This document shows, piece after piece, positions 23,621-58,950 of a stretch of 64,000 nucleotides of DNA. Each line of letters starts with the position of its first letter. Within the stretch, counting starts at the first letter, position 1. The stretch is from contig CM049310.1 of assembly GCA_026874595.1 (NCBI GenBank), positions 38,455,558 through 38,519,557 of the forward strand, written 5' to 3'. A model generated the notes under the pieces. The model had not been told where the DNA came from and searched no databases. It saw only the letters and a program-made list of their open reading frames with translations. The position numbers and the translations under genes are program-made. The DNA is from Sipunculus nudus. Lineage: Eukaryota > Annelida > Sipuncula > Golfingiida > Sipunculidae.

Positions 23621-23920
23621 GGACATCTGCCAATTTGTGCCAAGATTACACCAGCGTGTCACTTGCTGACGTGGTGCATCGCCAATCCACACCACAAGGT
23701 GGCGTTACAGCAGGTGGATTCCTTAAGGACACGGGAGCTCACACGATATACGAGTGTATACAAAGCTGCTGTGACAAAGACACGTGTAACTATGCATTCT
23801 TAGTGAACGAAACTTGCTTTTTGATTGAGTGCAATGTGACAGCACCAGAAGCTTGCCAGCCGACGCCCAGGAAGGCAGCGCGGTTTGAGAAAACTTTCAT
23901 GGTAGAAGTCAGAAGCATTG
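23621..23920 (+). CDS. Coding exon 2: MANSC (MANEC) domain
   Basis: 300 bp, acceptor cattttcag|gg and donor cattg|gtgagt, phase 1 on both sides, residues 26-125. It carries eight cysteines at 32, 71, 75, 76, 81, 91, 96 and 104. The core ECIQSCC-x4-C-x9-C-x4-C-x7-C is the signature of the motif at the N-terminus with seven or eight cysteines. A Gly-rich stretch (QGGVTAGGFL) precedes the first cysteine cluster, and a basic then hydrophobic tail (KTFMVEVRSI) closes the domain. Two N-glycosylation sequons lie inside it (NET at 88, NVT at 97). In this family the domain follows the signal peptide and is extracellular. One exon encodes the whole domain. Confidence 0.85.
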
Positions 23921-36671: not shown

Positions 36672-36938
36672 CTGAAACAACAGCGTTTCGGTTGATGAGC
36701 ACACCTGATGGTGCAGAGTATCAGACGACAACGAGGTCAGGTGAGAAGTCGTTGCTGGACCGGATAGGAACCCCCGGTCTGAATGACCTTGTCAGCAACG
36801 AATGTACCAAAGACACTGAATATAAAGACTGTGGACCACACGCTATATGTGACCTTGAGGTCAAGGAGGACCATATTGGTTTTGTGTGTAAGTGCGAAGA
36901 TGGATACCAGCCAGATCCTAAAACCAAATTATGCACAG
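36672..36938 (+). CDS. Coding exon 3: linker and EGF-like module 1
   Basis: 267 bp, acceptor ctattttcag|ct, donor gcacag|gtaagt, phase 1-1, residues 126-214. The first 44 residues are a polar linker rich in Thr, Ser and Arg. Six cysteines follow at 170, 179, 185, 198, 200 and 213, in the spacing C-x8-C-x5-C-x12-C-x-C-x12-C. The Cys-Lys-Cys-Glu-Asp-Gly-Tyr stretch is the typical second half of an EGF domain. No clear calcium-binding Asp/Asn start is seen. Phase 1-1 symmetry is usual for extracellular modules and makes the exon skippable without a frame change. Confidence 0.82.
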
Positions 36939-37135
36939 GTAAGTTTACTTTGTTTTATTAAATCTGATCAAATTAGTAACTGTGACATTAACAAATTAAT
37001 TATAATGTTATATATTTATAGATTTCAGAATGTGTTTGTGTTTGAATAGGGATTATCGTAAGTTGTTGGATGGAATTTTTATTTTTATCCTTTTTGTAGT
37101 TCCTTTATTTACTCTTTCTGCCTCTCTCTTTTTCT

Positions 37136-37141
37136 CTCTTT

Positions 37142-37168
<27 letters not shown>
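37136..37168. repeat. CT-rich microsatellite
   Basis: A short (CT)n run within a larger TTTCTCT-rich tract, shortly after exon 3's donor. Confidence 0.8.
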
Positions 37169-37172
<4 letters not shown>

Positions 37173-37283
37173 TTCCTTCTTCTTTCTATATTTAAATAAG
37201 ATATCTAAATTATATATGGATGGATATAAATGAAATGTGTGGAATCTGAGGATAGGTAGGCTTTGGACAACCAAGGGTTTACT

Positions 37284-38319
37284 TTTTAGCCCTCAGCCCC
37301 TAGGCTGATGGGCTATTGTCGTCACCCAAGCTGTCCGTCCGTCCGTCCGTCCGGCGTCCGTTAACTTTTACCTTGTGAGCGGGATATCTTGAAAAGGATT
37401 CACCGTCAATATTTTATTTCCTCGGTAAAGATGTATATCGACAAAATCTCGGTCAAGTTCGAAGATGGGTGACCTTGACCTATTTTTCTACATTTTAGAG
37501 CTGATTATAGAAAAACACTTAGATGCTTATTACTCAGGAACCATTTGGTGGATTTTCACAAAACTTACTATGATTATTAGGACTTATGGTTTGTACCTGC
37601 TTCACAAGTTTGGTGGTGCCACCTACAATTTCTGATTTTTAATGAATTTTTATCGGATTTTTCAACTTTGGGCTTGTGAGTGGGATATCTCTAAAAGGAT
37701 TCACCATAGGAATTTTATTTTTTTGGTGAAGATGTATATTGACAAAATCTCGGTCAAGTTTGCAGATGGGTGACCTTGACCTATTTTTCTACGTTTTAGA
37801 GCTGATTATAGAAAAAACATTTAGAAGCTTATTTCTCAGAAACCATTGGGTGGATTTTCACAATTTTTACTATGATCATAGGGACTGATGGTCTGTAACT
37901 GCTGCACAAGTTTGGGGGCGCCACCTGCAATTTCTGATTTTTATTGAATTTTTCTTGGATTTTTCAACTTTGGGCTTGTGAGCGGGATATCTCTAAAAGG
38001 ATTCACAAGAGGAATTTTATTTCTTTGGTGAAGATGTATATCTACAAAATCTCTGTCAAGTTTGAAGATGGGTGACCTTGACCTACTTTTCAAGGTCACA
38101 GAGCTTATAATAGAAAAAAACTTAGAAGCTTATTTTTCAAGAAGCATTTGGTGGATTGTTATGAATCATGGTACATACCTCTGCATTTTAAATTTATAAC
38201 TGAGACATGTACAGATATACATCCATGTGAGAACAGATATTTAGTACTTGTTACTGTTACCACCTCTAAACACTGTTGTTTTGGCTGAGGGCTTTTGTCA
38301 GCTTCTGCTGATATTCTAG
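37284..38319 (+). mobile_element. Complete Helentron-like (HINE) element, family C
   Basis: About 1,036 bp. 5' end TTTTTAGCCCTCAGCC, with an 11-bp hairpin (AGCCCTCAGCC against GGCTGATGGGCT). Then a CCGTCCGT microsatellite, three tandem core units of about 301 bp (phrase ttgtgagcgggatatctc at about 37373, 37674 and 37975) carrying 'gggtgaccttgacctattt'. Near the 3' end a subterminal inverted copy of the 5' end (GGCTGAGGGCTTTT), a perfect hairpin TCAGC-TTCT-GCTGA, then TATTCTAG followed by T. Asymmetric inverted repeats, 3' hairpin, CTRR end and T|T insertion are the known features of Helentrons and their non-autonomous derivatives. No Rep-helicase is encoded. Confidence 0.8.
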
Positions 38320-40222
38320 TTTCAAGCTAATTAGAGTCCTCACATTGAAGGGTTAAGTGACAAAATTTAGCAGTGGGCAGATAATTAAACTGCTTCATTT
38401 ATTGAAAATTCTGAACCACAAAGATTAACTTAAGAATGGCTATTAATAATTTCAAAGAATTATAGATTACTCTCATACCTGTAACTGCAAACCTTAAAAA
38501 ACAGTTTTAAAATAACCATTATCATTTAGATACCATATTTTACATTTTCTAACTGTCATCTCATATTCCATCTGTCTTATTTCATAAGGTTAACATTTTC
38601 ATCAAGATGGAGGCTGTATAGTTATCCCCATATACTTATCCAGAAGACAGCGACAGCTGGTGGTTTTGGTTTTAGCGGTTAAAATACCACCTTTTTTTAT
38701 CACAAATTAAATTACTGTGTGGGTTGGGTTAAATAATTTCTATTGTTTTATATATGTTATTTCAATAACTAGTGCAAATTATCTTGTGGAGAAACCTTGG
38801 AAGTCCATGTATTTTTAGCCTGTGATGCCTGTAACAGAAGGCCACAAAAAAGTGTACAATAGGAAGACTGCAAGGTTCTTTCTAAATACAGCAACATTAT
38901 GTGGGCAGAGAGTGGCTCAGAATGGCTGCACAGGAAATTTGAAGTTTCAAGAATAGTAGAGCAACAGTTGTAGATGAGACGTACAGGGAATCATTCTGTA
39001 CAGGAAGTGATGGGGGTTAATTAAGGCTGGAAGCAAAAGCGTGAGACTTCTGTCACATGTCAAAAATAGGCAGTGTTGAATCCTTATCTCAGCCAACACA
39101 GGCATTTTATGTAGTGACAACCTGCCCAATGTATTCAGCTCATTTCTCTGGTCTTAAGGTAACAAATTCTTCCCGCAGGTGGCAGCACTAGTGACTGTGC
39201 AGTTAATGACAAGAGTTTGTACAGTAATGATCCACAAATTATTGTGATCTTAACTGGTGACTAAAGGTGAACGACAGGCTCTTAAACACAGATAGGTGCA
39301 TACATGTATAAAACAGACATTTATTGTGAAACACATCTTTCAATAACATAACTGTTTTAAAGTTTACTACATATTAGACAAATACATTTTAATATATCAA
39401 ATGGAAATGAAAACCTATCACTTTGCAAACAAATGTTTTGGTTGAAGGCATGCTTGACAGGAACATTTTTTTATTCCAAAATAATAATGTTCTACAGGTA
39501 CATTAAATTTTTTTTTTGCTTAAATGATGAACTGCAGGAAATGACATATTTGAAAATATTCAACCAATAGAGATACTAGCATGGTATGATTAAGGTAGGA
39601 AGTCATAGATTTAGGAATAACAGTAATCCTTGATAAGAAGCATTGGCTTAAAGTAACTAGACACAGGAAACCATAGATTTTACAATATCAGTGCGACTCT
39701 TAGTATGAGGGCATTGGCTCGAAATCACTAGCCTGAGGAAATCAGAGATTTCAGTTCTGCCTGAGTGCTGAAGTGAATTGACACTTAAAAATGACTCTCA
39801 GTTCTGGTATTGGTTCTGATGAGATGAAGGTCGGCAGTAACGAGAACTTGGTGATGGATGGGAAGGGTCCGGGGATGAAGGTTGAATTCTGTGAGGAGAT
39901 TCAGGCTGATTAGGAGCTCTCCTTCTGGGGGTTTTTCTGCTGCTGTTGTCTTCAGAGACATCCTAGGATGTCAGCCAGTCCTGAACTCCTAATCTTGAGT
40001 AAAATCAGCCAACCTAGCTTTTGAGTCTTCTTTTTTTTTGTACTTTAAGTAATCCTGAGTCGGCGTCCACTTGTGTACCCATGCGCTGACTGGGCTGATA
40101 CTTGCCCTCGTTCTTTATTTTCCCCATGTCAAATGTTGTCATATCTTTTTCATACTATTACTATCTTTATATAGCATTCAGTGCTGTCTGGTACCTGTTA
40201 TCATAGAGTAAAGAAAAATTGA
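38320..40222. other. Intron 3 sequence, no gene recognised
   Basis: Ordinary AT-rich intron up to the satellite. A stretch at 39170-39195 (cccgcaggtggcagcac) weakly resembles a CTCF core. Around 39780-40000 the composition is more GC-rich without a frame of note. No exon or RNA seen. Confidence 0.4.
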
Positions 40223-43200
40223 GTTTGAATTGGACAATCTTTCAATATGTATCACCACTGATCTGGCTACTTTTGTTTTAAATTAGACAATCTTTCAATA
40301 TATATCACCACTGATCTGGCTACTTTTGTTTTGACTTGGACAATCTTTCAATATGTATCACCACTGATCTGGCTACTTTTGTTTTGAATTGGACAATCTT
40401 TCAATATGTATCAACACTGATCTGGCTACTTTTGTTTTGAATTAGACAATCTTTCAATATGTATCACCACTGATCTGGCTACTTTTGTTTTGAATTAGAC
40501 AATCTTTCAATATGTATCACCACTGATCTGGCTACTTTTGTTTTGACTTGGACAATCTTTCAATATGTATCACCACTGATCTGGCTACTTTTGTTTTGAC
40601 TTGGACAATCTTTCAATATGTATCACCACTGATCTGGCTACTTTTGTTTTGAATTGGACAATCTTTCAATATGTATCAACACTGATCTGGCTACTTTTGT
40701 TTTGACTTGGACAATCTTTCAATATATATCACCACTGATCTGGCTACTTTTGTTTTGACTTGGACAATCTTTCAATATGTATCACCACTGATCTGGCTAC
40801 TTTTGTTTTGAATTGGACAATCTTTCAATATGTATCACCACTGATCTGGCTACTTTTGTTTTAAATTAGACAATCTTTCAATATATATCACCACTGATCT
40901 GGCTACTTTTGTTTTGACTTGGACAATCTTTCAATATGTATCACCACTGATCTGGCTACTTTTGTTTTGACTTGGACAATCTTTCAATATGTATCACCAC
41001 AGATCTGGCTACTCTTGTTTTAAATTAGACAATCTTTCAATATGTATCACCACTGGTCTGGCTACTCTTGTTTTAAATTGGACAATCTTTCAATATGTAT
41101 CACCACTGATCTGGCTACTTTTGTTTTGACTTGGACAATCTTTCAATATGTATCACCACTGATCTGGCTACTTTTGTTTTGACTTGGACAATCTTTCAAT
41201 ATGTATCACCACTGATCTGGCTACTTTTGTTTTGACTTGGACAATCTTTCAATATGTATCACCACTGATCTGGCTACTTTTGTTTTGACTTGGACAATCT
41301 TTCAATATGTATCACCACTGATCTGGCTACTTTTGTTTTGACTTGGACAATCTTTCAATATGTATCACCACTGATCTGGCTACTTTTGTTTTGACTTGGA
41401 CAATCTTTGAATATGTATCACCACTGATCTGGCTACTTTTGTTTTAAATTAGACAATCTTTCAATATGTATCACCACTGGTCTGGCTACTCTTGTTTTAA
41501 ATTGGACAATCTTTCAATATGTATCACCACTGATCTGGCTACTCTTGTTTTAAATTGGACAATCTTTCAATATGTATCACCACTGATCTGGCTACTCTTG
41601 TTTTAAATTAGACAATCTTTCAATATGTATCACCACTGATCTGGCTACTCATGTTTTAAATTAGACAATCTTTCAATATGTATCACCACTGATCTGGCTA
41701 CTCATGTTTTGAATTGGACAATCTTTCAATATATATCACCACTGATCTGGCTACTCTTGTTTTAAATTGGACAATCTTTCAGTATGTCTCACCACTGATC
41801 TGGCTACTCTTGTTTTAAATTGGACAATCTTTCAGTATGTCTCACCACTGATCTGGCTACTTTTGTTTTAAATTAGACAATCTTTCAATATGTATCACCA
41901 CTGATCTGGTTACTTTTGTTTTGAATTGGACAATCTTTCAATAAATATCACCACTGATCTGGCTACTTTTGTTTTAAATTGGACATTCTTTCAATATGTA
42001 TCACCACTGATCTGGCTACTCTTGTTTTAAATTAGACAATCTTTCAATATGTATCACCACTGATCTGGCTACTCTTGTTTTAAATTGGACAATCTTTCAA
42101 TATGTATCACCACTGATCTGGCTACTTTTGTTTTAAATTAGACAATCTTTCAATATGTATCACCACTGATCTGGCTACTTTTGTTTTAAATTAGACAATC
42201 TTTCAATATGTATCACCACTGATCTGGCTACTCTTGTTTTAAATTGGACAATCTTTCAATATGTATCACCACTGATCTGGCTACTCTTGTTTTAAATTAG
42301 ACAATCTTTCAATATGTATCACCACTGATCTGGCTACTCTTGTTTTAAATTGGACAATCTTTCAATATGTATCACCACTGATCTGGCTACTCTTGTTTTA
42401 AATTAGACAATCTTTCAATATGTATCACCACTGATCTGGCTACTTTTGTTTTAAATTAGACAATCTTTCAATATGTATCACCACTGATCTGGCTACTTTT
42501 GTTTTAAATTAGACAATCTTTCAATATGTATCACCACTGATCTGGCTACTTTTGTTTTAAATTGGACAATCTTTCAATATATATCACCACTGATCTGGCT
42601 ACTCTTGTTTTGAATTGGACAATCTTTCAGTATGTATCACCACTGATCTGGCTACTCTTGTTTTAAATTGGTAATCTTTCAATATAAATCACCACTGATC
42701 TGGCTACTCTTGTTTTAAATTAGACAATCTTTCAATATGTATCACCACTGATCTGGCTACTTATGTTTTAAATTGGACAATCTTTCAATATATATCACCA
42801 CTGATCTGGCTACTTTTGTTTTAAATTAGACAATCTTTCTATATGTATCACCACTGATCTGGCTACTTTTGTTTTGAATTGGACAATCTTTCAATATATA
42901 TCACCACTGATCTGGCTACTCTTGTTTTAAATTGGACAATCTTTCAATATGTATCACCACTGATCTGGCTACTCTTGTTTTAAATTGGACAATCTTTCAG
43001 TATGTCTCACCACTGATCTGGCTACTTTTGTTTTAAATTAGACAATCTTTCAATATGTATCACCACTGGTCTGGCTACTCTTGTTTTAAATTGGACAATC
43101 TTTCAATATGTATCACCACTGATCTGGCTACTTTTGTTTTAAATTAGACAATCTTTCAATATGTATCACCACTGATCTGGCTACTCTTGTTTTAAATTGG

Positions 43201-46200
43201 ACAATCTTTCAATATGTATCACCACTGATCTGGCTACTCTTGTTTTAAATTGGACAATCTTTCAATATGTATCACCACTGATCTGGCTACTCTTGTTTTA
43301 AATTAGACAATCTTTCAATATGTATCACCAATGATCTGGCTACTTTTGTTTTAAATTAGACAATCTTTCAATATGTATCACCACTGGTCTGGCTACTCTT
43401 GTTTTAAATTGGACAATCTTTCAATATGTATCACCACTGATCTGGCAACTCATGTTTTGAATTGGACAATCTTTCAATATATATCACCACTGATATGGCT
43501 ACTCTTGTTTTAAATTGGACAATCTTTCAATATGTATCACCACTGATCTGGCTACTCTTGTTTTAAATTAGACAATCTTTCAATATATATCACCACTGAT
43601 CTGGCTACTTTTGTTTTCAATTGGACAATCTTTCAATATGTATCACCACTGGTCTGGCTACTCTTGTTTTAAATTGGACAATCTTTCAATATGTATCACC
43701 ACTGATCTGGCTACTCTTGTTTTAAATTAGACAATCTTTCAATATATATCACCACTGATCTGGCTACTTTTGTTTTAAATTGGACAATCTTTCAATATGT
43801 ATCACCACTGATCTGGCTACTCTTGTTTTAAATTGGACAATCTTTCAATATGTATCACCACTGATCTGGCTACTCTTGTTTTAAATTAGACAATCTTTCA
43901 ATATGTATCACCACTGATCTGGCTACTTTTGTTTTAAATTAGACAATCTTTCAATATGTATCACCACTGATCTGGCTACTTTTGTTTTAAATTAGACAAT
44001 CTTTCAATATGTATCACCACTGATCTGGCTTCTTTTGTTTTAAATTGGACAATCTTTCAATATATATCACCACTGATCTGGCTACTCTTGTTTTGAATTG
44101 GACAATCTTTCAATATGTATCACCACTGATCTGGCTACTTTTGTTTTAAATTAGACAATCTTTCAATATGTATCACCACTGATCTGGCTACTCTTGTTTT
44201 AAATTGGACAATCTTTCAATATGTATCACCACTGATCTGGCTACTCTTGTTTTAAATTGGACAATCTTTCAATATGTATCACCACTGATCTGGCTACTCT
44301 TGTTTTAAATTAGACAATCTTTCAATATGTATCACCACTGATCTGGCTACTCTTGTTTTAAATTAGACAATCTTTCAATATGTATCACCACTGATCTGGC
44401 TACTTTTGTTTTAAATTAGACAATCTTTCAATATGTATCACCACTGATCTGGCTACTTTTGTTTTAAATTAGACAATCTTTCAATATGTATCACCACTGA
44501 TCTGGCTACTTTTGTTTTAAATTGGACAATCTTTCAATATATATCACCACTGATCTGGCTACTCTTGTTTTGAATTGGACAATCTTTCAGTATGTATCAC
44601 CACTGATCTGGCTACTCTTGTTTTAAATTGGACAATCTTTCAATATAAATCACCACTGATCTGGCTACTCTTGTTTTAAATTAGACAATCTTTCAATATG
44701 TATCACCACTGATCTGGCTACTTTTGTTTTAAATTGGACAATCTTTCAATATATATCACCACTGATCTGGCTACTTTTGTTTTAAATTAGACAATCTTTC
44801 AATATGTATCACCACTGATCTGGCTACTTTTGTTTTGAATTGGACAATCTTTCAATATGTATCACCACTGATCTGGTTACTTTTGTTTTAAATTCGACAA
44901 TCTTTCAATATGTATCACCACTGATCTGGCTACTTTTGTTTTGAATTGGACAGTCTTTCAATATGTATCACCACAGATCTGGTTACTTTTGTTTTGAATT
45001 GGACAATCTTTCAATATGTATCACCACTGATCTGGCTACTCATGTTTTGAATTGGACAATCTTTCAGTATGTATCACCACTGATCTGGCTACTCATGTTT
45101 TGAATTGGACAATCTTTCAGTATGTATCACCACTGATCTGGCTACTTTTGTTTTGAATTGGACAATCTTTCAATATGTATCACCACTGATCTGGCTACTT
45201 TTGTTTTGAATTGGACAATCTTTCAATATGTATCAACACTGATCTGGCTGCTTTTGTTTTGAATTGGACAGTCTTTCAATATGTATCACCATAGATCTGG
45301 TTACTTTTGTTTTGAATTGGACAATCTTTCAATATGTATCACCACTGATCTGGCTACTCATGTTTTGAATTGGACAATCTTTCAGTATGTATCACCACTG
45401 ATCTGGCTACTTTTGTTTTGAATTGGACAATCTTTCAATATGTATCACCACTGATCTGGCTACTCTTGTTTTGAATTGGACAGTTTTTCAGTATGTATCA
45501 CCACTGATCTGGCTACTCATGTTTTGAATTGGACAATCTTTCAGTATATATCACTACTGATCTGACTACTTTTGTTTTGAATTGGACAATCTTTCAATAT
45601 GTATCACCACTGATCTGGCTACTCTTGTTTTAAATTGGACAATCTTTCAGTATGTCTCACCACTGATCTGGCTACTTTTGTTTTAAATTAGACAATCTTT
45701 CAATATATATCACCACTGATCTGGCTACTTTTGTTTTGACTTGGACAATCTTTCAATATGTATCACCACTGATCTGGCTACTTTTGTTTTGACTTGGACA
45801 ATCTTTCAATATGTATCACCACTGATCTGGCTACTTTTGTTTTGACTTGGACAATCTTTCAGTATGTATCACCACTGATCTGGCTACTTTTGTTTTGACT
45901 TGGACAATCTTTCAATATGTATCACCACTGATCTGGCTACTTTTGTTTTGACTTGGACAATCTTTCAATATGTATCACCACTGATCTGGCTACTTTTGTT
46001 TTGACTTGGACAATATTTGAATATGTATCACCACTGATCTGGCTACTTTTGTTTTAAATTAGACAATCTTTCAATATGTATCACCACTGGTCTGGCTACT
46101 CTTGTTTTAAATTGGACAATCTTTCAATATGTATCACCACTGATCTGGCTACTCTTGTTTTAAATTGGACAATCTTTCAATATGTATCACCACTGATCTG

Positions 46201-49200
46201 GCTACTCTTGTTTTAAATTAGACAATCTTTCAATATGTATCACCACTGATCTGGCTACTCATGTTTTGAATTGGACAATCTTTCAATATATATCACCACT
46301 GATCTGGCTACTCTTGTTTTAAATTAGACAATCTTTCAATATGTATCACCACTGATCTGGCTACTTTTGTTTTAAATTAGACAATCTTTCAATATGTATC
46401 ACCACTGGTCTGGCTACTTTTGTTTTAAATTAGACAATCTTTCAATATGTATCACCACTGATCTGGCTACTTTTGTTTTAAATTAGACAATCTTTCAATA
46501 TGTATCACCACTGATCTGGCTACTTTTGTTTTAAATTAGACAATCTTTCAATATGTATCACCACTGATCTGGCTACTCTTGTTTTAAATTGGACAATCTT
46601 TCAATATGTATCACCACTGATCTGGCTACTCTTGTTTTAAATTAGACAATCTTTCAGTATGTATCACCACTGATCTGGCTACTTTTGTTTTACATTAGAC
46701 AATCTTTCAATATGTATCACCACTGATCTGGCTACTTTTGTTTTAAATTGGACAATCTTTCAATATCTATCACCACTGATCTGGTTACTTTTGTTTTGAA
46801 TTGGACAATCTTTCAATAAATATCACCACTGATCTGGCTACTTTTGTTTTAAATTGGACATTCTTTCAATATGTATCACCACTGATCTGGCTACTCTTGT
46901 TTTAAATTAGACAATCTTTCAATATGTATCACCAGTGATCTGGCTACTCTTGTTTTAAATTGGACAATCTTTCAATATGTATCACCACTGATCTGGCTAC
47001 TTTTGTTTTAAATTAGACAATCTTTCAATATGTATCACCACTGATCTGGCTACTCTTGTTTTAAATTGGACAATCTTTCAATATGTATCACCACTGATCT
47101 GGCTACTCTTGTTTTAAATTAGACAATCTTTCAATATGTATCACCACTGATCTGGCTACTCTTGTTTTAAATTGGACAATCTTTCAATATGTATCACCAC
47201 TGATCTGGCTACTTTTGTTTTAAATTAGACAATCTTTCAATATGTATCACCACTGATCTGGCTACTTTTGTTTTAAATTAGACAATCTTTCAATATGTAT
47301 CACCACTGATCTGGCTACTTTTGTTTTAAATTGGACAATCTTTCAATATATATCACCACTGATCTGGCTACTCTTGTTTTGAATTGGACAATCTTTCAGT
47401 ATGTATCACCACTGATCTGGCTACTCTTGTTTTAAATTGGTAATCTTTCAATATAAATCACCACTGATCTGGCTACTCTTGTTTTAAATTAGACAATCTT
47501 TCAATATGTATCACCACTGATCTGGCTACTTTTGTTTTAAATTGGACAATCTTTCAATATATATCACCACTGATCTGGCTACTTTTGTTTTAAATTAGAC
47601 AATCTTTCAATATGTATCACCACTGATCTGGCTACTTTTGTTTTGAATTGGACAATCTTTCAATATGTATCACCACTGATCTGGTTACTTTTGTTTTAAA
47701 TTGGACAATCTTTCAATATGTATCACCACTGATCTGGCTACTTTTGTTTTGAATTGGAGAGTCTTTCAATATGTATCACCACAGATCTGGTTACTTTTGT
47801 TTTGAATTGGACAATCTTTCAATATGTATCACCACTGATCTGGCTACTCATGTTTTGAATTGGACAATCTTTCAGTATGTATCACCACTGATCTGGCTAC
47901 TCATGTTTTGAATTGGACAATCTTTCAGTATGTATCACCACTGATCTGGCTACTTTTGTTTTGAATTGGACAATCTTTCAATATGTATCACCACTGATCT
48001 GGCTACTTTTGTTTTGAATTGGACAATCTTTCAATATGTATCAACACTGATCTGGCTGCTTTTGTTTTGAATTGGACAGTCTTTCAATATGTATCACCAT
48101 AGATCTGGTTACTTTTGTTTTGAATTGGACAATCTTTCAATATGTATCACCACTGATCTGGCTACTCATGTTTTGAATTGGACAATCTTTCAGTATGTAT
48201 CACCACTGATCTGGCTACTTTTGTTTTGAATTGGACAATCTTTCAATATGTATCACCACTGATCTGGCTACTCTTGTTTTGAATTGGACAGTCTTTCAGT
48301 ATGTATCACCACTGATCTGGCTACTCTTGTTTTGAATTGGACAATCTTTCAGTATATATCACTACTGATCTGACTACTTTTGTTTTGAATTGGACAATCT
48401 TTCAGTATATATCACTACTGATCTGGCTACTTTTGTTTTAAATTGGACAATCTTTCAATATGTATCACCACTGATCTAGCTACTTTTGTTTTAAATTGGA
48501 CAATCTTTCAGTATGTATCACCACTGATCTGGCTACTCTTGTTTTGAATTGGACAATCTTTCAATATATATCACCACTGATCTGGCTACTTTTGTTTTAA
48601 ATTAGACAATCTTTCAATATGTATCACCACTGATCTGGCTACTTTTGTTTTAAATTGGACAATCTTTCAATATCTATCACCACTGATCTGGTTACTTTTG
48701 TTTTGAATTGGACAATCTTTCAATAAATATCACCACTGATCTGGTTACTTTTGTTTTGAATTGGACAATCTTTCAATATAAATCACCACTGATCTGGTTA
48801 CTTTTGTTTTGAATTGGACAATCTTTCAATATGTATCACCACTGATCTGGCTACTTTTGTTTTGAATTGGACAGTCTTTCAATATGTATCATTACAGATC
48901 TGGTTACTTTTGTTTTGAATTGGACAATCTTTCAATATGTATCACCACTGATCTGGCTACTCATGTTTTGAATTGGTCAATCTTTCAGTATGTATCACCA
49001 CTGATCTGGTTACTCATGTTTTGAATTGGACAATCTTTCAGTATGTATCACCACTGATCTGGCTACTTTTGTTTTGAATTGGACAATCTTTCAATATGTA
49101 ACACCACTGATCTGGCTACTTTTGTTTTGAATTGGACAATCTTTCAATATGTATCACCACTGATCTGGCTACTTTTATTTTGAATTGGACATTCTTTCAA

Positions 49201-49570
49201 TATGTATCACCACAGATCTGGTTACTTTTGTTTTGAATTGGACAATCTTTCAATATGTATCACCACTGATCTGGCTACTCATGTTTTGAATTGGACAATC
49301 TTTCAGTATGTATCACCACTGATCTGGCTACTTTTGTTTTGAATTGGACAATCTTTCAATATGTATCACCACTGATCTGGCTACTCTTGTTTTGAATTTG
49401 ACAATCTTTCAGTATGTATCGACACTGATCTGGCTACTTTTGTTTTGAATTGGACATTCTTTCAATATATATCACCACTGATCTGGCTACTCTTGTTTTG
49501 AATTGGACAATCTTTCAGTATATATCACTAATGATCTGACTACTTTTGTTTTGAATTGGACAATCTTTTA
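40223..49570. repeat. 53-bp satellite/minisatellite array, 176 units
   Basis: A head-to-tail array of a 53-bp unit, containing 'ggacaatctttcaatatgta', 'tcaccactgatctggctac' and (t/c)ttgtttt. The anchor ggacaatc lies at 40232 in the first unit and 49558 in the last: 9,326 bp, that is 176 x 53 minus 2. The 2 bp are accounted for by two 1-bp deletions (ggtaatc at 42670 and 47439). Variation is mostly at a few fixed positions (aaatta/aaattg/gaattg/gacttg before gac; tttt or tctt or tcat before gtttt; atgtatc or atatatc). 53 is not a multiple of 3 and stops occur in all frames, so it is non-coding. It lies wholly inside intron 3. Confidence 0.98.
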
Positions 49571-49714
49571 TACCATCTTTTCTGGAATTTTGTCATTGTT
49601 CAGATTTTGCATAAATGATCAAAATTTTAGTTCTCAGGTTTTTATTTCAGATAAACAAATTTTTTGGTTAAACGTTCTTTGGATATTCTACGTTCTACTG
49701 TATATATATTTATA

Positions 49715-49990
49715 TATATATACATATATACATCAAGGCCCAGGTCCCAATCAGGACCAATTTGCTATTGGTCCAGACCAAATCTCGATCAGGATTCAGG
49801 CCAGCCTAAACTCTTATCAGGATTTTGGCCGGACCATGGCTGGACCAGATCCCAATCGGGGTATAGGCCAGACTTTATCTTGATTGGGATTTGATCTTGA
49901 CTGATTCCCAATTGGTCCTGACCAAATCCTATTCAGGATTCTGACCAATCCTAACCCTGATCAGGATCTGGTCAAGCCCAAATCTTGTTT
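49715..49990. repeat. AT microsatellite and degenerate GATCAGGATT-type repeats
   Basis: A TATATATA stretch is followed by about 250 bp of short degenerate repeats in both orientations: aatcaggaccaat, gaccaaatctcgatcaggatt, tggaccagatcccaatcggg, tgattgggatttgatc, cctgatcaggatctgg. One clear hairpin is gaccaat-ttgct-attggtc. A related phrase is found alone at about 51690-51735. Probably a foldback-type repeat; unclassified. Confidence 0.5.
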
Positions 49991-50371
49991 TCATGTTCGA
50001 GTAGTACTGTAAAATTAAGGAAAATTCACCTTAAATCAGCCTACTCATTACTTGAAATCTAAAATCATCATGACAAAATTTTATTTCTGCCATGCCAGTC
50101 TTCAAATACATAGAGTTTCTTGAACAAGTTAACATCAGTAGGTCTGATACTTGACATTTATTATAATTAATGAAATAAAAGAACACTTTTGACATTTGTG
50201 GCACAACTTAACCTTTGTGAAAATTCCAAACATGTTAAACTTGATGAAAAAAACTTTTTCTGGCTTGTGTTACCTTTATGCATCTTGTGTGTATGAATCA
50301 AAATAATTAAATTTTCTTAAATAAACAAAAACATTTTACAAATATAAACATTTTTACATTGACTTGATAAT

Positions 50372-51560
50372 TGTATCTGCCAAAACAGAGTTTTGCGGAT
50401 ACTATGTTTTCAGCTGCACGCCGCTGCCGCCGCGGCCGCCGCGTAGGTTTCCGGAGAACTCCTCCGTAACCGCTGGGCGGAATTTTACGAAACCCGGGAT
50501 TATGTTCGGGTCACATGTGAACTGCTGCGCCCCGATTTTGTTTTGACCTCTGACCTTTCCTCTGCGCTCTGCGTCCGTTTGTGCGTCTGTTTCCACACAT
50601 AAACCCACATATCTCGGGAACCGTTTGACGGATCACGAAATTTTTTGTGCACAAATGTAGCCCTTGGAGAGCTTTATAACATACACAAAAAATGGTGGCG
50701 CCACCTGCAACCATGTTTGCACAGTGTCCATCTGTTCGTCTGCCTTGGGTTAAAATCACTCATATCTCTGCAGTGACTTGACTAATTCACCTGAAATTTG
50801 GCATGCGTATACATCCTGGATAGCTTTTCTGATTTTGTGACAGGTGGCGCCACCTACATTCATGTTTACGCTGCAGACATCCAAGCTCATATCTCGGGAA
50901 CCGTTTGACCGATCAGGTAAATTTTTTTGCACAAATGTAGCTCTTGGAGAGCTTTATAACATACACAAAAAATGGTGGCACCACCTGCAACCATGTTTGC
51001 ACAGTGTCCATCTGTTCGTCTGCCTTGGGTTAAAATCACTCATATCTCCGCAGTAACTTGACTAATTCACCTGAAATTTGGCATGCGTATACATCCTGGA
51101 TAGCTTTTCTGATTTTATGACAGGTGGCGCCACCTACATTCACATTTACGCTGCAGACATCCAAGCTCATATCTCGGGAAACATTAGACCAATTGGGTCA
51201 AAATTTTGCATGTGTATAGATCTCACATAGCTCTTTATCATACGCAAAACTGGTGGCGCCACCTGCAACCATTTTTGCTCAGCGTCCATCTGATTGTCTG
51301 CCACGGGCTAAAATCACTCATATACATGTAGTGGTTTGACTTATCTGCCTTAAATTTTGCATATGTATACAACTTGGACGGCTTTCTGGATTTTGTGGTA
51401 GGGGGGGCAACCTTCATACACAATTTGGCTGCAGACATCCATGCTAATATGCAACACTTCACTCTATTTTCCCTTGCCACTTAATCCATGCCTCACTTCA
51501 CCCGTTCCACTCTGATTTAGGCGGATACACGTAGTCGCTTGTCGACTACCCGTATTCTAG
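50372..51560 (+). mobile_element. Complete Helentron-like (HINE) element, family B-related
   Basis: 1,189 bp. The 5' end TGTATCTGCC forms a hairpin with GCGGATAC and is followed by a very CpG-rich stretch (cgccgctgccgccgcggcc). Three core units of 280 bp follow (phrase atctcgggaa at 50611, 50891 and 51171), each with two palindromic GGTGGCGCCACC sites or variants. Subterminally GGCGGATACA is the inverted copy of the 5' end (9 of 10). A perfect hairpin GTAGTCG-CTTGT-CGACTAC follows, then CCGTATTCTAG (CTAG 51557-51560) and TT. The ends are flanked by T on both sides. Open frames on both strands are repeat by-products. Confidence 0.82.
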
Positions 51561-53805
51561 TTAAAAAGAGCCTTTTGGACATGAAGTTAGCAAGCTAATA
51601 CAGTTTTAACCTCATAAGGGTAGCCATAAACATAACTGATTAAACAAGAAGACATTCTTTTTGTTATTAATTGAATATTTGGATTTACTCTGGACTAAAT
51701 CCCAATCGGGATCTTGTCTGGACCAATCTGGAGTTCGGTGATGATATGAGAAGCACAATATTCAACAGACAGTAATTTTATCACACTTGGGCCCTTATCA
51801 CCTTTTGTCAGTCACTTCATTTGGATTGCAAGGTGCTGCCATCTGCCCCTTAAAATGTGTACTATAGGGGGGTCTTCCATCAGGATGACATGTAACAGTT
51901 ACAAATCTCTGACTTTGATACAGAAAACTTTCAATTTTGCAAAGAAAAGAGATTAGATTATTAGAAATAGTGGTATTGAATAACAAAATACACAGCTTTT
52001 TGTAAGAATACTGACATATGATGTCTCTTGGAAAATGTAGAAATAAAAGAAAATGTAATTTTATGAAGTTTAACATTTTAAAAAGGCCATGAGTACAGTA
52101 TATACTCTGAATGAATTGTATGATCATATCAGTTATCATACAGGTTAGTATTGAGTACTAGGTGTAAGTTCCTACTGCTGTTAAGAATTTTCATACTTTT
52201 CATCATAGAAATTTGCGTATACAAAAAGCATTTTGAGCATTCAAGAAGCATTTTGCATTACCTCCATGGCGTCTTAAACAATTGATCTTGCATTTCTGTC
52301 CATGTTTGATGTCTGATTGTCCATGAGCTGTCACTTGGGCAAAGGTGATTTATCACATACAGATAGTTTGTCAACAGTTCATGTCAAGTATATAGAATAT
52401 ATGTAATCTGACAACATTCAAACTCTGTAATAATCACTTTTAATAATCTCGGTCAGTAATAATCTGCTTGGTGAAGCTGCATGACCATCACTTGATCAAG
52501 GCCAGGGACCTGGTCCAGTGTTGTGTGTGGTGTGAGTTCCGCTTTGGTTTTAAATGGGGGTTTTGAGTATTTTGACTTTAGTACTAGTGAGCACCTTAAA
52601 GGGGGCACGCAACCTCAGGGTGTGGCCATAAAAAGGGAAATACATCAGTAAAGGGTACCTGCTTTTTCAAGTGCGGCCTTAGTGCTTTTCTTTGGATATG
52701 TTCAGGGAGTAGATTTCCAGACCTGCCAATAATAGTGTACGGGGCATGGGACTTGTAATTACAAACATGGGCTTTACCAGTAGTCAGACTTTTGTCTTCT
52801 GTAATGCACTTGTGTGTAAATGATCTGTTACAGTTACTATATGTTTCAGAAGTGGCTGTGCCTATTGGACAGCCTATAAGATAGGTCCTTAGACCTGTAA
52901 TGTATGTAATTAAGCAAACAAATAGGCATGCTCTGTTTAGACTTTATAACATTTAAATGTTTCAAAAGTAATGTGGAATCATCTTCTCTGCATATCAGCA
53001 TAATAAAAATATTTAAATGTGACAACTTTGATTAAAAAAACCCCTTGCATTTGCACTGAGGTTTTATGGAAACAATAGTGTGACACAACCAACAATGATA
53101 GACTTGTAAATGTTAAAACTATTTGTAGATTTCTGTTGCATGTGCTCCCACTGGTTAACTGTTTTGAAGACACCCTGTCTGTCTTTTGAGTGTATTCCAT
53201 TTGACTGAGTTCATCACATGACTTGAAATAAGAGGATGTATTCTCAAAGGTGGCCAGGTGAAGACAGCTTCAGTGTTTCTAAGGGCTGGATTAGGTTTTT
53301 ATGAGGCTCTGTCATGATAGAGATAATAGCCAAGTTGCTTTCTCTTTTATGTCAAGTATCACGCAAGAAGAACTTTTTTTAACATAACAGAGCCTTTGAA
53401 ATGTCAAAGCACCCCAGAGTGTGAGGTCATAATACTAGATAAAATTAGAAGCAATGCATCATAGGTAAATATGCTCAGACACAAAACTTCATGGATTGGA
53501 ACTTTTGGAACAATAAAACTCTTTATTACATTAGACAGAAATTGTAGGATCCCCTGTGCATTTTAGAAATTATAAAAAAATGAAGAGGGAATGCATCCTG
53601 GGTAGTCAAGTGGTAAAACTGTCTGAATTTAATGGGTTGTTCCTTAGGTGTTCTCCTAACCCTCCACAAATTTCAACAAAATCTGTAACAAAGGTAGAGT
53701 ATAATACCTCTCACAACATGGCGAGGTAAAAATATTTGATTAGGTAATTTGCAGTGCATCATGGGTAAATATATATTCAAACGCATAAGAATCATGGGAG
53801 TCACT
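51561..53805. other. Intron 3 sequence, no gene recognised
   Basis: AT-rich intron. A degraded repeat at about 52585-52680 (cttaaagggggcacgcaacc, aagtgcggcctt) echoes the CpG-bearing stretch at about 3490-3570. No exon, RNA gene or tandem array seen. Confidence 0.4.
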
Positions 53806-54835
53806 TTTAGCCCTCAGCCCTTAGGCTGATGGGCTATTGTTGTCACCCAAGCTGTCCGTCCGTCCGTCCGGCGTCTGTTAACTTTTACCTTGTGAGCGGG
53901 ATATCTCTAAAAGGATTCAAATTAGGAATTTTATTTCCTCGGTAAAGATGTATATCGACAAAATCTCGGTCAAGTTCGAAGATGGGTGACCTTGACCTAT
54001 TTTTCTACATTTTAGAGCTGATTATAGAAAAACACTTAGATGCTTATTACTCAGGAACCATTTGATGGATTTTCACAAAACTTACTATGATCATTGGGAC
54101 TGATAATCTGTACCTGCTACACAAGTTTGGTGGCGCCACTTACAATATCTGATTTTTAATGAATTTTTATCTGATTTTTCAACTTTGGGCTTGTGAGCGG
54201 GATATCTCTAAAAGGATTCACCGTAGGAATTTTATTTTTTCAGTGAAAATGTATATTGACAAAATCTTGGTCAAGTTTGAAGATGGGTGACCTTGACCTA
54301 TTTTTCTACGTTTTAGAGCTGATAATAGAAAAAACATTTAGAAGCTTATTTCTCAGGAACCATTGGCTGGATTTTCACAATACTTACTATGATCATAGGG
54401 AGTGATGGTCTGTAACTGCTGCACAAGTTTGGGGGCGCCACCTGCAATTTCTGATTTTTAATGAATTTTCTTGGATTTTTCAACTTTGGCCTTGTGAGCG
54501 GGATATCTCTAAAAGGATTCAAATTAGGAATTTTATTTCTTTGGTGAAGATGTATATCGACAAAATCTCGGTCAAGTTCGAAGATGGGTGACCTTGACCT
54601 ACTTTTCAAGGTCACAGAGCTGATAATAGAATAAAACTTAGAAGCTTATTTTTCAGGAAGCATTTGATGGATTGTTATGAATCATGGTACATACCTCTCC
54701 ATTTTAAATTTATAACTGAGACATGTGCAGATATACATCCATGTGAGAACAGATATTTAGTACTTATTACTGTTACCACCTCTAAACACTGTTCTTTTGG
54801 CTGAGGGCTTTTGTCAGCTTCTGCTAATATTCTAG
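53806..54835 (+). mobile_element. Complete Helentron-like (HINE) element, family C
   Basis: About 1,030 bp and highly similar throughout to the copy at 37284-38319: the same 5' hairpin head (TTTTAGCCCTCAGCC), CCGTCCGT stretch, three core units of about 300 bp, subterminal GGCTGAGGGCTTTTG, a 3' hairpin with one mismatch and TATTCTAG (CTAG 54832-54835), followed by TT. High identity between copies implies recent activity of the family. Confidence 0.82.
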
Positions 54836-56270
54836 TTTACTTAGCACACATCAACCCTTTTATAGGGCACAGTATCCCCAAGTTGTGCCGTTAAAGTACA
54901 GGGCTATTAAAGAGCAATACATTATTAGCAAATACTTTTTCCTGAGAATATTCATGGAAATATACATATGCTTGAAAACTAAACACATCATCTTGTTATG
55001 TAGTGAAATGTTTATTTGCCGGTAATGGGAATGCATCATGGGTAAATATGTTCAGGCACTAAAGCATCATGGGAAGAGCTCTTGGGAAGTCATTTGTTGT
55101 CACTTTCCATTTGGCTGTCATGATGAAACCAATGGCTGAAGTCCACTGGGGAATTAGAATAACTCTGTCAGGCCACATTGGTGATAGTTCTGAGTGGAAT
55201 GCTTTTTAGCAGAGCCAGAAGGATGCTTTTAGGAGACTAGTTTAATCTCCCATTGGGAACTTTGTAAAGACTATTTATTTTCCAATACAAACCTGTAGCT
55301 TTATTTGCTGCATGACTGTCCTCTCTGCAGGACTACTGTGGACAATACTTTGCGCCTTACAATGCACAAATAAAGGTTCTCTCAGCCATTAACATATATT
55401 ACAAATAACATATATTACATTCACAGTTGACTTATGATTCTATTCAGCAGTTATTAATAAATAATGAGGTTTGTTTACTCATAAAGTATGTCTTTCTGTC
55501 CATAACAATGACTTGACAGCAGAAACTGTGGTAGACAAAACTGCTTGAAACTTCAGTTCTCGTGGTCAGGGTTAATAAACCACCACAAATTTTGCATAAC
55601 AAATTTTTTTCATTATTATTTAGCAAAATATTAAATCAACACCATATTAAGCCTCTGATGTCAAATACTACCATACAGCAAATATTTTGAACCGGGTGTT
55701 GGGAATGGGTGATCTAGTATGACTTGTATCATGACTCGCAGGCCCATATCAGTAAATTTAAAAAATGTTAAGATATAGTTTATTGCTATATATATGTAAT
55801 AAAATCATCACATACAATAGTATTTGGCTTGACTGGCTTGCTTAAACAAACACATTAAACAAGATTAATAAAATTAATGTCATGTTGTCATGGCTTCTAT
55901 CAGAGTATCTTTGTTGGTCCTGAAGGCTGATCCATGTCAGCTGATAGCTGGTAAGGGGAACAGGGATTTCCAAAGTTAGGGTGCCAAGAGTTATAAACTA
56001 TGAAGTTGATGGCTTAGGCGGTAAGTCCTCATACAGCACTATTTCAAGACACATTTTTGGTAAAAAAAAGTTCCCAGGAGCATATATATAGGTAAACATT
56101 CCTCAGGCACTATCTTAACAATAACAGTACAGGGTTTGCTTCCTCACATTGGACACTTTTTCATTATTTCTATTTTGCAAAGGCATGGTGTCAAGTTTCA
56201 GAAATGTGTTTGAGCCCTGCACTTGAGTAGCTTTGTGATCATAATGAATTTTTTTTGCGTGTGTTTATAG
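54836..56270. other. Intron 3, right end, no gene recognised
   Basis: AT-rich intronic sequence between the third Helentron-like copy and exon 4. No repeat copy seen elsewhere in the window was noticed. Confidence 0.4.
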
Positions 56271-56450
56271 CTTTGTCTCCCATGAGCACCACACGTCCAG
56301 CAGACAGATCCTGTACATATGGGTTGCTTGACGATTGTTTTGAGAATGAAGAGTGTGTACCAAATAGTGTCAATAGTCGGTCCCGGCAAGGGTCCTGTCA
56401 TTGTGTCAAAGGATACGTGCAGAATACCACCACAGGCATGTGTGTTAAAA
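56271..56450 (+). CDS. Coding exon 4: EGF-like module 2
   Basis: 180 bp, acceptor gtgtttatag|ct, donor gttaaaa|gtaggt, phase 1-1, residues 215-274. Six cysteines at 229, 237, 243, 257, 259 and 272 (C-x7-C-x5-C-x13-C-x-C-x12-C) make a second EGF-like module. It includes the phrases ENEECVPN, SRSRQGSCHC and VKGYV. One N-glycosylation sequon (NTT at 266) lies in the final loop. The exon is separated from module 1 by a 19.3-kb intron containing the 53-bp satellite and two Helentron-like elements. Both splice sites are good, so the satellite does not appear to disrupt the gene. Confidence 0.82.
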
Positions 56451-58287: not shown

Positions 58288-58423
58288 CAAAGCCAAGGAA
58301 GTGTAACTTCATCTCCACTACAAGACAGTACACTGTCACCATCAGGGACCAGTCCAACATCAAAGGGCTCCATCAACCTCCAATCTCCCAGCAGCACCAT
58401 AGCCCCCAGTGTCAAATCTACAG
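58288..58423 (+). CDS. Coding exon 6: Ser/Thr/Pro-rich stalk (last exon seen)
   Basis: 136 bp, acceptor tttattctag|ca, donor tctacag|gtaagt, entering in phase 0 and leaving in phase 1, residues 296-340 plus one base. The peptide is almost entirely Ser, Thr, Pro, Gly and Gln, continuing the mucin-like stalk. The 3' end of the exon, together with 44 bp of intron, is duplicated in tandem downstream, so its donor is the first of seven identical ones. Reading on past this donor stays open for 25 codons, then hits TAA at the second copy's donor. Because 76 is not a multiple of 3, the second donor would change the frame. The first donor is therefore the productive one. The gene continues beyond the window. 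Confidence 0.75.
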
Positions 58424-58950
58424 GTAAGTCTGTCAGACACAGGTCCAACCACCCTCCATCCTCCCAGCAGCACCATAGCCCCCAGTGTCAAATCTACAGG
58501 TAAGTCTGTCAGACACAGGTCCAACCACCCTCCATCCTCCCAGCAGCACCATAGCCCCCAGTGTCAAATCTACAGGTAAGTCTGTCAGACACAGGTCCAA
58601 CCACCCTCCATCCTCCCAGCAGCACCATAACCCCCAGTGTCAAATCTACAGGTAAGTCTGTCAGACACAGGTCCAACCACCCTCCATCCTCCCAGCAGCA
58701 CCATAGCCCCCAGTGTCAAATCTACAGGTAAGTCTGTCAGACATAGGTCCAACCACCCTCCATCCTCCCAGCAGCACCATAGCCCCCAGTGTCAAATCTA
58801 CAGGTAAGTCTGTCAGACACAGGTCCAACCACCCTCCATCCTCCCAGCAGCACCATAGCCCCCAGTGTCAAATCTACAGGTAAGTCTGTCAGACAAAGGT
58901 CCCACCACCCTCCTTCCTCCCAGCAGCACCACGGCCCCTAGCGCCATTTT
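58385..58950 (+). repeat. 76-bp tandem array duplicating the exon 6 donor
   Basis: The unit joins the last 32 bp of exon 6 (cagcaccatagcccccagtg, tcaaatctacag) to the first 44 bp of its intron (gtaagtctgtcagacac, aggtccaaccaccctcc). The donor tctacag|gtaagt recurs at 58424, 58500, 58576, 58652, 58728, 58804 and 58880, always exactly 76 bp apart; an eighth, degraded copy lacks the donor. Units differ by only one or two bases, so expansion is recent. Each unit also has a pyrimidine-rich tcctcccag that could act as an acceptor. Confidence 0.95.

What the first reader, a model, noticed from the sequence alone, without database searches (positions are those of the whole stretch)
40223..49570. 9.35-kb satellite with perfect 53-bp register inside an intron
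From the first to the last anchor the array measures 9,326 bp, exactly 176 x 53 minus 2, and the two missing bases are explained by two 1-bp deletions (42670 and 47439). Such length constancy with many substitutions suggests homogenisation by unequal exchange or gene conversion that tolerates base changes but not length changes. A satellite this size inside an intron of an otherwise intact gene is unusual.
Basis: seen in the sequence. Interest (0 to 1): 0.8.

Follow-up and report, generated by a model that had tools for sequence, protein, structure and literature searches.

The report
Transposon fragment tandemly amplified in intron
A 53-letter piece from near one end of a common "jumping gene" relic has been copied head to tail 176 times at one place inside an intron, which is a clear but fairly ordinary example of how a long tandem repeat is born.

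Summary
In detail: 40224-49568 is one head-to-tail array of 53 bp, 176 anchors, 173 spacings of 53 and two of 52.

The new result is its origin. The unit is a single-copy internal piece of a dispersed ~1.36-kb non-autonomous pogo-like (Tc1/mariner) transposon. That element's 3' end, with its terminal inverted repeat, still sits directly after the array at 49569-49702; its 5' part was not found. Unit-to-unit junctions (34 bp, up to 3 mismatches) number 170 in the whole assembly and 170 in this array. So this is a single-locus array grown from one transposon relic, not a dispersed or centromeric satellite.

The two 1-bp deletions are one mutation, copied once inside a duplicated block. Identical blocks at shifts of 37, 53 and 90 units point to unequal exchange or a similar whole-unit process. 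The "perfect register" needs no special rule: by independent events, indels are not significantly rarer than in 39 dispersed copies (1 seen, 3.9 expected, P = 0.09), although by raw copy counts they are. The host looks like a KIAA0319-like gene, 19.3-kb intron.

Known kind; modest interest.

The parts
40224..49568 (+). Tandem array, 53-bp unit, 176.4 copies by TRF
   Evidence: TRF; 176 anchors, 173 of 175 spacings exactly 53
40224..40242 (+). Partial first unit (last 19 bp of the unit); left boundary of the array lies inside a unit and abuts single-copy sequence
   Evidence: first full unit starts 40243; 39600-40224 has one match in the genome, itself
42628..42679 (+). 52-bp unit (first copy of the deletion)
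47397..47448 (+). 52-bp unit, identical to 42628-42679 with identical neighbours: second copy of the same deletion
42416..42732 (+). Units 41-46, identical to units 131-136 (47185-47501), shift 90 units, containing the deletion
   Evidence: coordinates computed from the unit starts
44959..45435 (+). Units 89-97, identical to units 142-150 (47767-48243), shift 53 units: longest identical block
   Evidence: coordinates computed from the unit starts
49516..49568 (+). Last unit, next to the transposon tail; the last 20 units are more divergent (3.2 differences from the majority unit) than the middle (2.06)
49569..49702 (+). Remnant of the 3' end of a non-autonomous pogo-like transposon
   Evidence: 79-84% identical, together with the last unit, to 39 dispersed copies; aligned to three full elements up to their last bases
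49681..49702 (-). Terminal inverted repeat of the transposon, one mismatch to the query motif, ending in TA
36672..36938 (+). Exon 5' of the array intron (EGF-like, sub-threshold Pfam matches), 267 bp, AG/GT flanked
36939..56270 (+). Intron (19,332 bp) that holds the array
56271..56450 (+). Exon 3' of the array intron, 180 bp, AG/GT flanked, same frame; cysteine-rich, no Pfam match
23621..23920 (+). Upstream exon, 300 bp, KIAA0319_N (PF23597, 39.4 bits over cut-off 27) and MANEC (31.1 over 25.5)

Best explanation
One copy of a dispersed, non-autonomous pogo-like DNA transposon lay in this intron. A 53-bp stretch starting about 185 bp from its 3' end (single-copy in every other copy read) was duplicated in place and then expanded to 176 units by out-of-register exchange between sister chromatids or homologues (or an equivalent whole-unit copying process such as break-induced or slipped synthesis). 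These events move whole units and whole blocks, so the 53-bp phase is kept automatically while substitutions spread. The element's 5' part, with its left inverted repeat, and the original left edge of the array were later lost by a deletion that cut inside a unit. Shown here: the transposon origin, uniqueness of the array in this assembly, block copying, attached 3' end, no detectable 5' end. Inferred: the exchange mechanism, the order of events, the deletion, lack of function.
For: All 39 scored matches (39 of 195 candidates scored; the array itself was not listed) are about one unit long (48-57 bp). In 49 fetched loci (42 distinct places, since 7 of the short loci repeat long ones) 49 of 49 hold one unit (the 39 short ones reach only about 60 bp beyond the match). 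Nine of ten long loci share a 3' terminus about 185 bp after the unit start; L006 diverges right after the unit. Inverted-repeat motif: left end in 3 of 10, right end in 8 of 10. With one 1,359-bp element as query, 26 of 40 scored places, itself included, match end to end, within 6 bases. The window matches three full elements from the last units through the 3' terminus, and nowhere left of the array. Longest open frame of the element 90 codons. 150 of 150 scored DDE_1 (pogo-type) matches pass the cut-off (517 candidates); 5 of 12 fetched loci have similar inverted repeats 2,746-2,766 bp apart; ends (77-98 bp, 79-84%) and about 125 internal bp (76%) match the short element. Junctions: 170 in the genome, 170 in the window. 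A laxer 22-bp junction: 204 in the genome, 174 of them in the window, so 30 elsewhere against 24 for the reversed control. Identical-unit runs at shifts 53, 90, 37 of 9, 6, 5 units; maximum 4 in 200 shuffles. Neighbour difference 2.63 against 3.29 +/- 0.08, 0 of 2000 shuffles as low. The deletion is in units 45 and 135 but not in the corresponding unit 82.
Against: No 5' part of the element is found, so insertion of a full element here is inferred from one end only. No short direct repeats flank the unit in the elements I looked at (by eye, not computed), so the first duplication has no obvious trigger. Counting copies instead of events, indels are rarer than in controls (2 to 381 against 8 to 149, p = 0.001); I discount this because copies are not independent. 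Unequal crossing-over cannot be told from gene conversion or replication-based copying with one haplotype. Junctions too diverged for the patterns would have been missed.
Confidence: 0.87

Rival explanations
1. The array is a locus of a general (dispersed or centromeric) satellite family that the transposon later picked up and spread as single monomers, the direction proposed in the capture model for MITE-borne satellites.
For: Such capture is proposed for Xenopus miDNA4 (review passage, PMC12628747). Single monomers are common elsewhere.
Against: No tandem junction elsewhere at up to 3 mismatches in 34 (170 of 170 in this array). The element's 3' tail continues directly from the last unit, as in the dispersed copies. 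Dispersed copies differ more from their own majority (149 substitutions in 39 copies, 3.8 each) than array units from theirs (381 in 174, 2.2 each), so they look older, though homogenisation of the array would give the same contrast.
Confidence: 0.05
2. Selection keeps the phase: the array is a spaced set of binding sites or a chromatin element for the KIAA0319-like gene, so length changes are purged.
For: Only one indel event in 9.3 kb; copy-level contrast with controls p = 0.001.
Against: Event-level contrast is not significant (p = 0.26; P of at most one indel 0.087). A unit with the deletion was itself copied. Array private to one locus; longest open frame in it 52 codons.
Confidence: 0.04
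3. Assembly artefact: copy number or block order wrong, or the array misplaced in the intron.
For: Arrays of this kind are error-prone (general knowledge); no reads available.
Against: 65 distinct units among 176, ordered neighbour similarity, clean left and right junctions, right junction matches the dispersed element.
Confidence: 0.04

Closest known systems
Xenopus tropicalis miDNA4: satellite driven by a Tc1/mariner MITE (Scalvenzi and Pollet 2014; paper not seen, only as described in passages of PMC9659126 and PMC12628747)
   Same: Unit lies inside a non-autonomous Tc1/mariner-superfamily element; exists as single monomers and as an array.
   Different: Here only one copy of the element is known to carry an array; the array is at one locus; no flanking direct repeats of 5 bp or more seen by eye; left inverted repeat not found.
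Bivalve Helentron/Pearl-borne tandem repeats (Crassostrea gigas, PMC7492417 and PMC8268682, passages only)
   Same: Tandem repeat tied to a mobile element; single monomers the commonest form for most of those repeats; arrays of over 100 monomers mostly stand alone.
   Different: Different element class (rolling-circle against pogo-like cut-and-paste); repeats in PMC7492417 average 140-180 bp with at most about 29 monomers; here 53 bp, 176 units, one locus.
Transposon-derived minisatellites (review PMC6947457, passages)
   Same: Short unit cut from a transposon, expanded by slippage or unequal exchange.
   Different: The model there uses short direct repeats flanking the source segment; none seen here. 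Whether 9.3 kb is long for such arrays in general was not surveyed.
Satellite sequences inside HSP70 introns of Mytilus galloprovincialis (Kourtidis et al. 2006; title only, in reference lists)
   Same: Satellite-like repeats inside introns.
   Different: Details not seen.

Membership tests
Transposon-derived tandem array (MITE-derived satellite/minisatellite) | Repeat unit is part of a dispersed transposon | tested here: met
Transposon-derived tandem array (MITE-derived satellite/minisatellite) | Array still lies within the element (both ends present) | tested here: not met
   3' end present at 49569-49702; no 5' end found left of the array
Transposon-derived tandem array (MITE-derived satellite/minisatellite) | Array carried by several element copies (as in miDNA4) | tested here: not met
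   170 of 170 junctions in one array; 49 of 49 fetched loci, 42 distinct places, show one unit each
Classical satellite DNA | Head-to-tail array of many similar units | tested here: met
Classical satellite DNA | Abundant, multi-locus, usually heterochromatic | tested here: not met
   single locus, intronic; chromatin state not testable
pogo-like Tc1/mariner element (source transposon) | Terminal inverted repeats next to TA | tested here: met
   both ends by motif in L002, L007, L008, 3 of 10; in the window right end only
pogo-like Tc1/mariner element (source transposon) | DDE_1 transposase with the same ends | tested here: inconclusive
   none in the short element (longest frame 90 codons); related 2.75-kb DDE_1 elements have similar, not identical, ends (79-84%); that they move it is inferred
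KIAA0319-like host gene | KIAA0319 N-terminal / MANEC domain | tested here: met
   both over cut-off
KIAA0319-like host gene | Downstream PKD domains (recalled feature) | not tested
   none looked for; they would be expected beyond the window
VNTR | Length polymorphism between alleles | not testable with these tools
   one haplotype only

The most novel reading that the evidence does not exclude
The relic's surviving single inverted repeat, about 110-130 bp from the array, may still be nicked or bound by pogo-like transposases encoded elsewhere in this genome, and such one-ended cuts could seed the re-synthesis that expanded the adjoining 53-bp segment. This would make a dead transposon end an active tandem-repeat generator at one locus.
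Probability: 0.06. Interest if true: 0.6.

Novelty: new member of a known kind. Interest (0 to 1): 0.27.

Why it matters
It is a clean snapshot of the birth of a long tandem array: the single-copy parent sequence, the attached parental transposon end, an old edge and a fresh edge, and an internal record of block duplications are all readable at one locus. It also shows how easily a "perfect register" can be over-read: two deletions are one event, and whole-unit exchange keeps phase without selection. It does not change understanding of satellites.

Tried and rejected
Centromeric or dispersed satellite: rejected, junctions found only at this locus (the laxer pattern left 30 places outside against 24 for its control). 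LINE 3' end (first suspected from copies with variable 5' starts): rejected when inverted repeats at both ends and end-to-end 1.36-kb copies were found. Hidden 5' half of the element left of the array: none found. Coding array: longest open frame 52 codons. Selection on length: see the event-level test; the copy-level test went the other way (p = 0.001) and is reported. A regular higher-order repeat: no single period, runs at shifts 53, 90, 37 and others. Fourth exon at 58288-58423: open in two frames, so I do not use it. Naming the species: one literature search gave nothing useful; left open. Literature searches; none of the listed titles or abstract starts named this array; I claim nothing about print beyond those searches.

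Control details: the 39 dispersed copies are the 39 non-self rows with the tail among the 40 places scored (of 383 candidates), chosen by similarity, so the control leans towards well-preserved copies and related subfamilies; rows inside the array were left out. Indels in the unit of those copies were counted as 7 and 8 (slightly different column limits). The number of copies of the source element is unknown; 936 was a rough first-look candidate number.
Full report
WHAT IS THERE. Tandem Repeats Finder reports 40224-49568 as one array, period 53, 176.4 copies, 94% matches, 0% indels. An independent anchor search finds 176 anchors; of 175 spacings 173 are 53 and two are 52. In the register used below, units begin CAATATG; the first full unit starts at 40243, the last at 49516. 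Among 176 units there are 65 distinct sequences in that register; mean pairwise difference between the 174 full-length units is 6.4%.

WHAT IT CAME FROM. A search of the window's own genome (G000, 1.43 Gb, 153 contigs) with 500 bp of the array returned 39 scored matches (of 195 candidates), none of them in the array itself, all about one unit long (48-57 bp) and 92-100% identical, on many contigs. Ten of these places were fetched with 1.5 kb on each side. Their flanks are homologous to each other over up to 1.35 kb; nine of ten share a terminus about 185 bp after the start of the unit, while L006 diverges right after the unit. The ends are inverted repeats: a TACAGTAGAGCGTCG-type left end in 3 of 10 (L002, L007, L008) and its right-hand partner in 8 of 10, allowing 5 mismatches. 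One such 1,359-bp element used as a query matches 26 of 40 scored places end to end (within 6 bases), itself included. It has no open frame above 90 codons. All 49 fetched loci (42 distinct places) hold one unit each (the 39 short ones reach only about 60 bp beyond the match). So the unit is a single-copy internal piece of a dispersed non-autonomous inverted-repeat transposon.

CLASS OF THE TRANSPOSON. DDE_1 (PF03184; that this is the pogo-type domain is recalled) gives 150 of 150 scored matches over the cut-off in G000, of 517 candidates. Of 12 loci fetched, 5 (L050, L052, L056, L057, L059) have TACAGTGGAGCG-type inverted repeats 2,746-2,766 bp apart; the other 7 did not show both ends of that motif, and one of them (L060) has a different pair. 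The ends match the short element over 77-98 bp at 79-84%, and an internal stretch of about 125 bp matches at 76% (best 20 rows). The TA at the ends fits the TA target duplication of the Tc1/mariner superfamily (PMC7325037, passages). I therefore call the source a non-autonomous pogo-like element. That these particular transposases move it is inferred.

THE PARENT IS STILL ATTACHED. In the window, the last unit runs on without a break into 134 bp (49569-49702) that are the 3' end of this element, including its inverted repeat at 49681-49702 with one mismatch. Left of the array no part of the element is found: three full elements match the window only from the last units onwards (rows inside the array were filtered out of that listing), no left inverted repeat was found with up to 5 mismatches, and 39600-40224 has a single match in the genome, itself. 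The array starts inside a unit, with its last 19 bp. The last 20 full-length units carry 3.2 differences from the majority unit, the first 20 carry 2.05 and the middle 2.06. An old, poorly homogenised edge thus survives on the right, next to the transposon tail, and not on the left. The simplest reading is that a deletion removed the element's 5' part together with the old left edge of the array.

ONE LOCUS ONLY. A 34-bp pattern that spans the junction between two units, allowing 3 mismatches, has 170 matches in the whole genome on the forward strand and none in reverse (100 places listed). The window alone has 170. A shorter, laxer 22-bp junction gave 186 forward and 18 reverse in the genome, 174 of them in the window; the 30 others compare with 24 for the reversed control pattern, so further junctions are within noise. 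In this assembly it is not a dispersed or centromeric satellite.

HOW IT GREW. Runs of identical consecutive units occur at shifts of 53 units (9 units), 90 units (6) and 37 units (5); 13 runs of 4 or more against a mean of 0.025 in 200 shuffles, whose longest run was 4. One 5-unit run at shift 1 shows local expansion as well. Adjacent units differ by 2.63 against 3.29 +/- 0.08 after shuffling, 0 of 2000 as low. The blocks around units 36-55, 73-92 and 126-145 are visibly related; the third resembles the first closely in its left part and the second in its right part, as an out-of-register exchange could leave. This supports whole-unit, block-wise exchange. It does not separate crossing-over from conversion or replication-based copying.

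THE REGISTER. The two 52-bp units (42628-42679 and 47397-47448) are identical, between identical neighbours, 90 units apart; the related unit 82 has the same block context and no deletion. They are best read as one deletion, copied once. So the array holds one indel event and 41 distinct substitution alleles. As a yardstick, the same 53 bp in 39 dispersed copies holds 7 distinct indels and 68 distinct substitution alleles. By events the array is not significantly poor in indels (Fisher p = 0.26; 3.9 expected, P of at most one = 0.087). By raw copies it is (2 to 381 against 8 to 149, p = 0.001), but copies inside a homogenising array are not independent. The claim that length change is specially forbidden is therefore not established. 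A total length close to a multiple of 53 follows from whole-unit exchange.

THE HOST GENE. An exon at 23621-23920 carries the KIAA0319 N-terminal domain and MANEC domain, both above Pfam cut-offs. Exons at 36672-36938 (EGF-like, below cut-off) and 56271-56450 (no Pfam match) are AG/GT flanked, multiples of three, and read through in one frame with the first. The array lies in the 19,332-bp intron between the last two. No RNA evidence was available, so the exon calls are inferences from sequence.

CONTEXT. In twelve 10-kb stretches on eleven contigs of this genome the longest tandem array was 1.5 kb; 9.3 kb is large here, though 120 kb is a small sample. Tandem arrays born from MITEs and other transposons are well described: Xenopus miDNA4 on a Tc1/mariner MITE, Helentron-borne repeats of oysters, and others (PMC9659126, PMC12628747, PMC7492417, PMC8268682, PMC6947457; passages only). 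In the oyster, single monomers are the commonest form for most repeats inspected, and arrays of over 100 monomers mostly stand alone (PMC8268682), much as here.

VERDICT. A real, well-formed array; a single-locus amplification of a 53-bp segment of a pogo-like MITE relic inside an intron; new member of a known kind. Interest is modest, raised a little by the completeness of the record.

Noticed in passing
58377-58938: A 76-bp tandem array (7.4 copies, 97% matches) in which units carry a donor-like CTACAG|GTAAGT (7 sites) and an acceptor-like CTCCCAG|CAG (8 sites), so an exon end with its splice site may have been tandemly multiplied; 76 is not a multiple of 3.
   Followed up: partly
37372-38157 and 53880-54673: Two arrays of about 300-bp units (2.6 copies each) with similar consensus sit on both sides of the 53-bp array, in the same intron: probably a dispersed repeat that contains tandem units.
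   Followed up: no
50608-51450: A 280-bp-unit array (3.0 copies) right of the transposon tail.
   Followed up: no
L004 1825-3053 and L010 1-284 (coordinates as): The right flank of one transposon copy (L004) holds several blocks of roughly 200-270 bp that each match the left flank of another (L010), 73-79% identical; relation to the window's 280-bp array not tested.
   Followed up: no
49751-49978: Imperfect inverted repeats (80-nt arms, 70% complementary, 11 nt apart, and a 25-nt pair) just right of the transposon tail.
   Followed up: no
L050, L052, L056, L057, L059: Five 2.75-kb pogo-like elements with near-identical inverted repeats at both ends; in four (not L056) the DDE_1 match has no stop inside, with open frames of 364, 578, 446 and 310 codons, which may point to fairly recent activity.
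   Followed up: partly
G000:C6:19299610-19346926: Five DDE_1 matches 10-15 kb apart, each in a 203-aa open frame: a larger segment with a pogo-type domain may be tandemly duplicated there.
   Followed up: no
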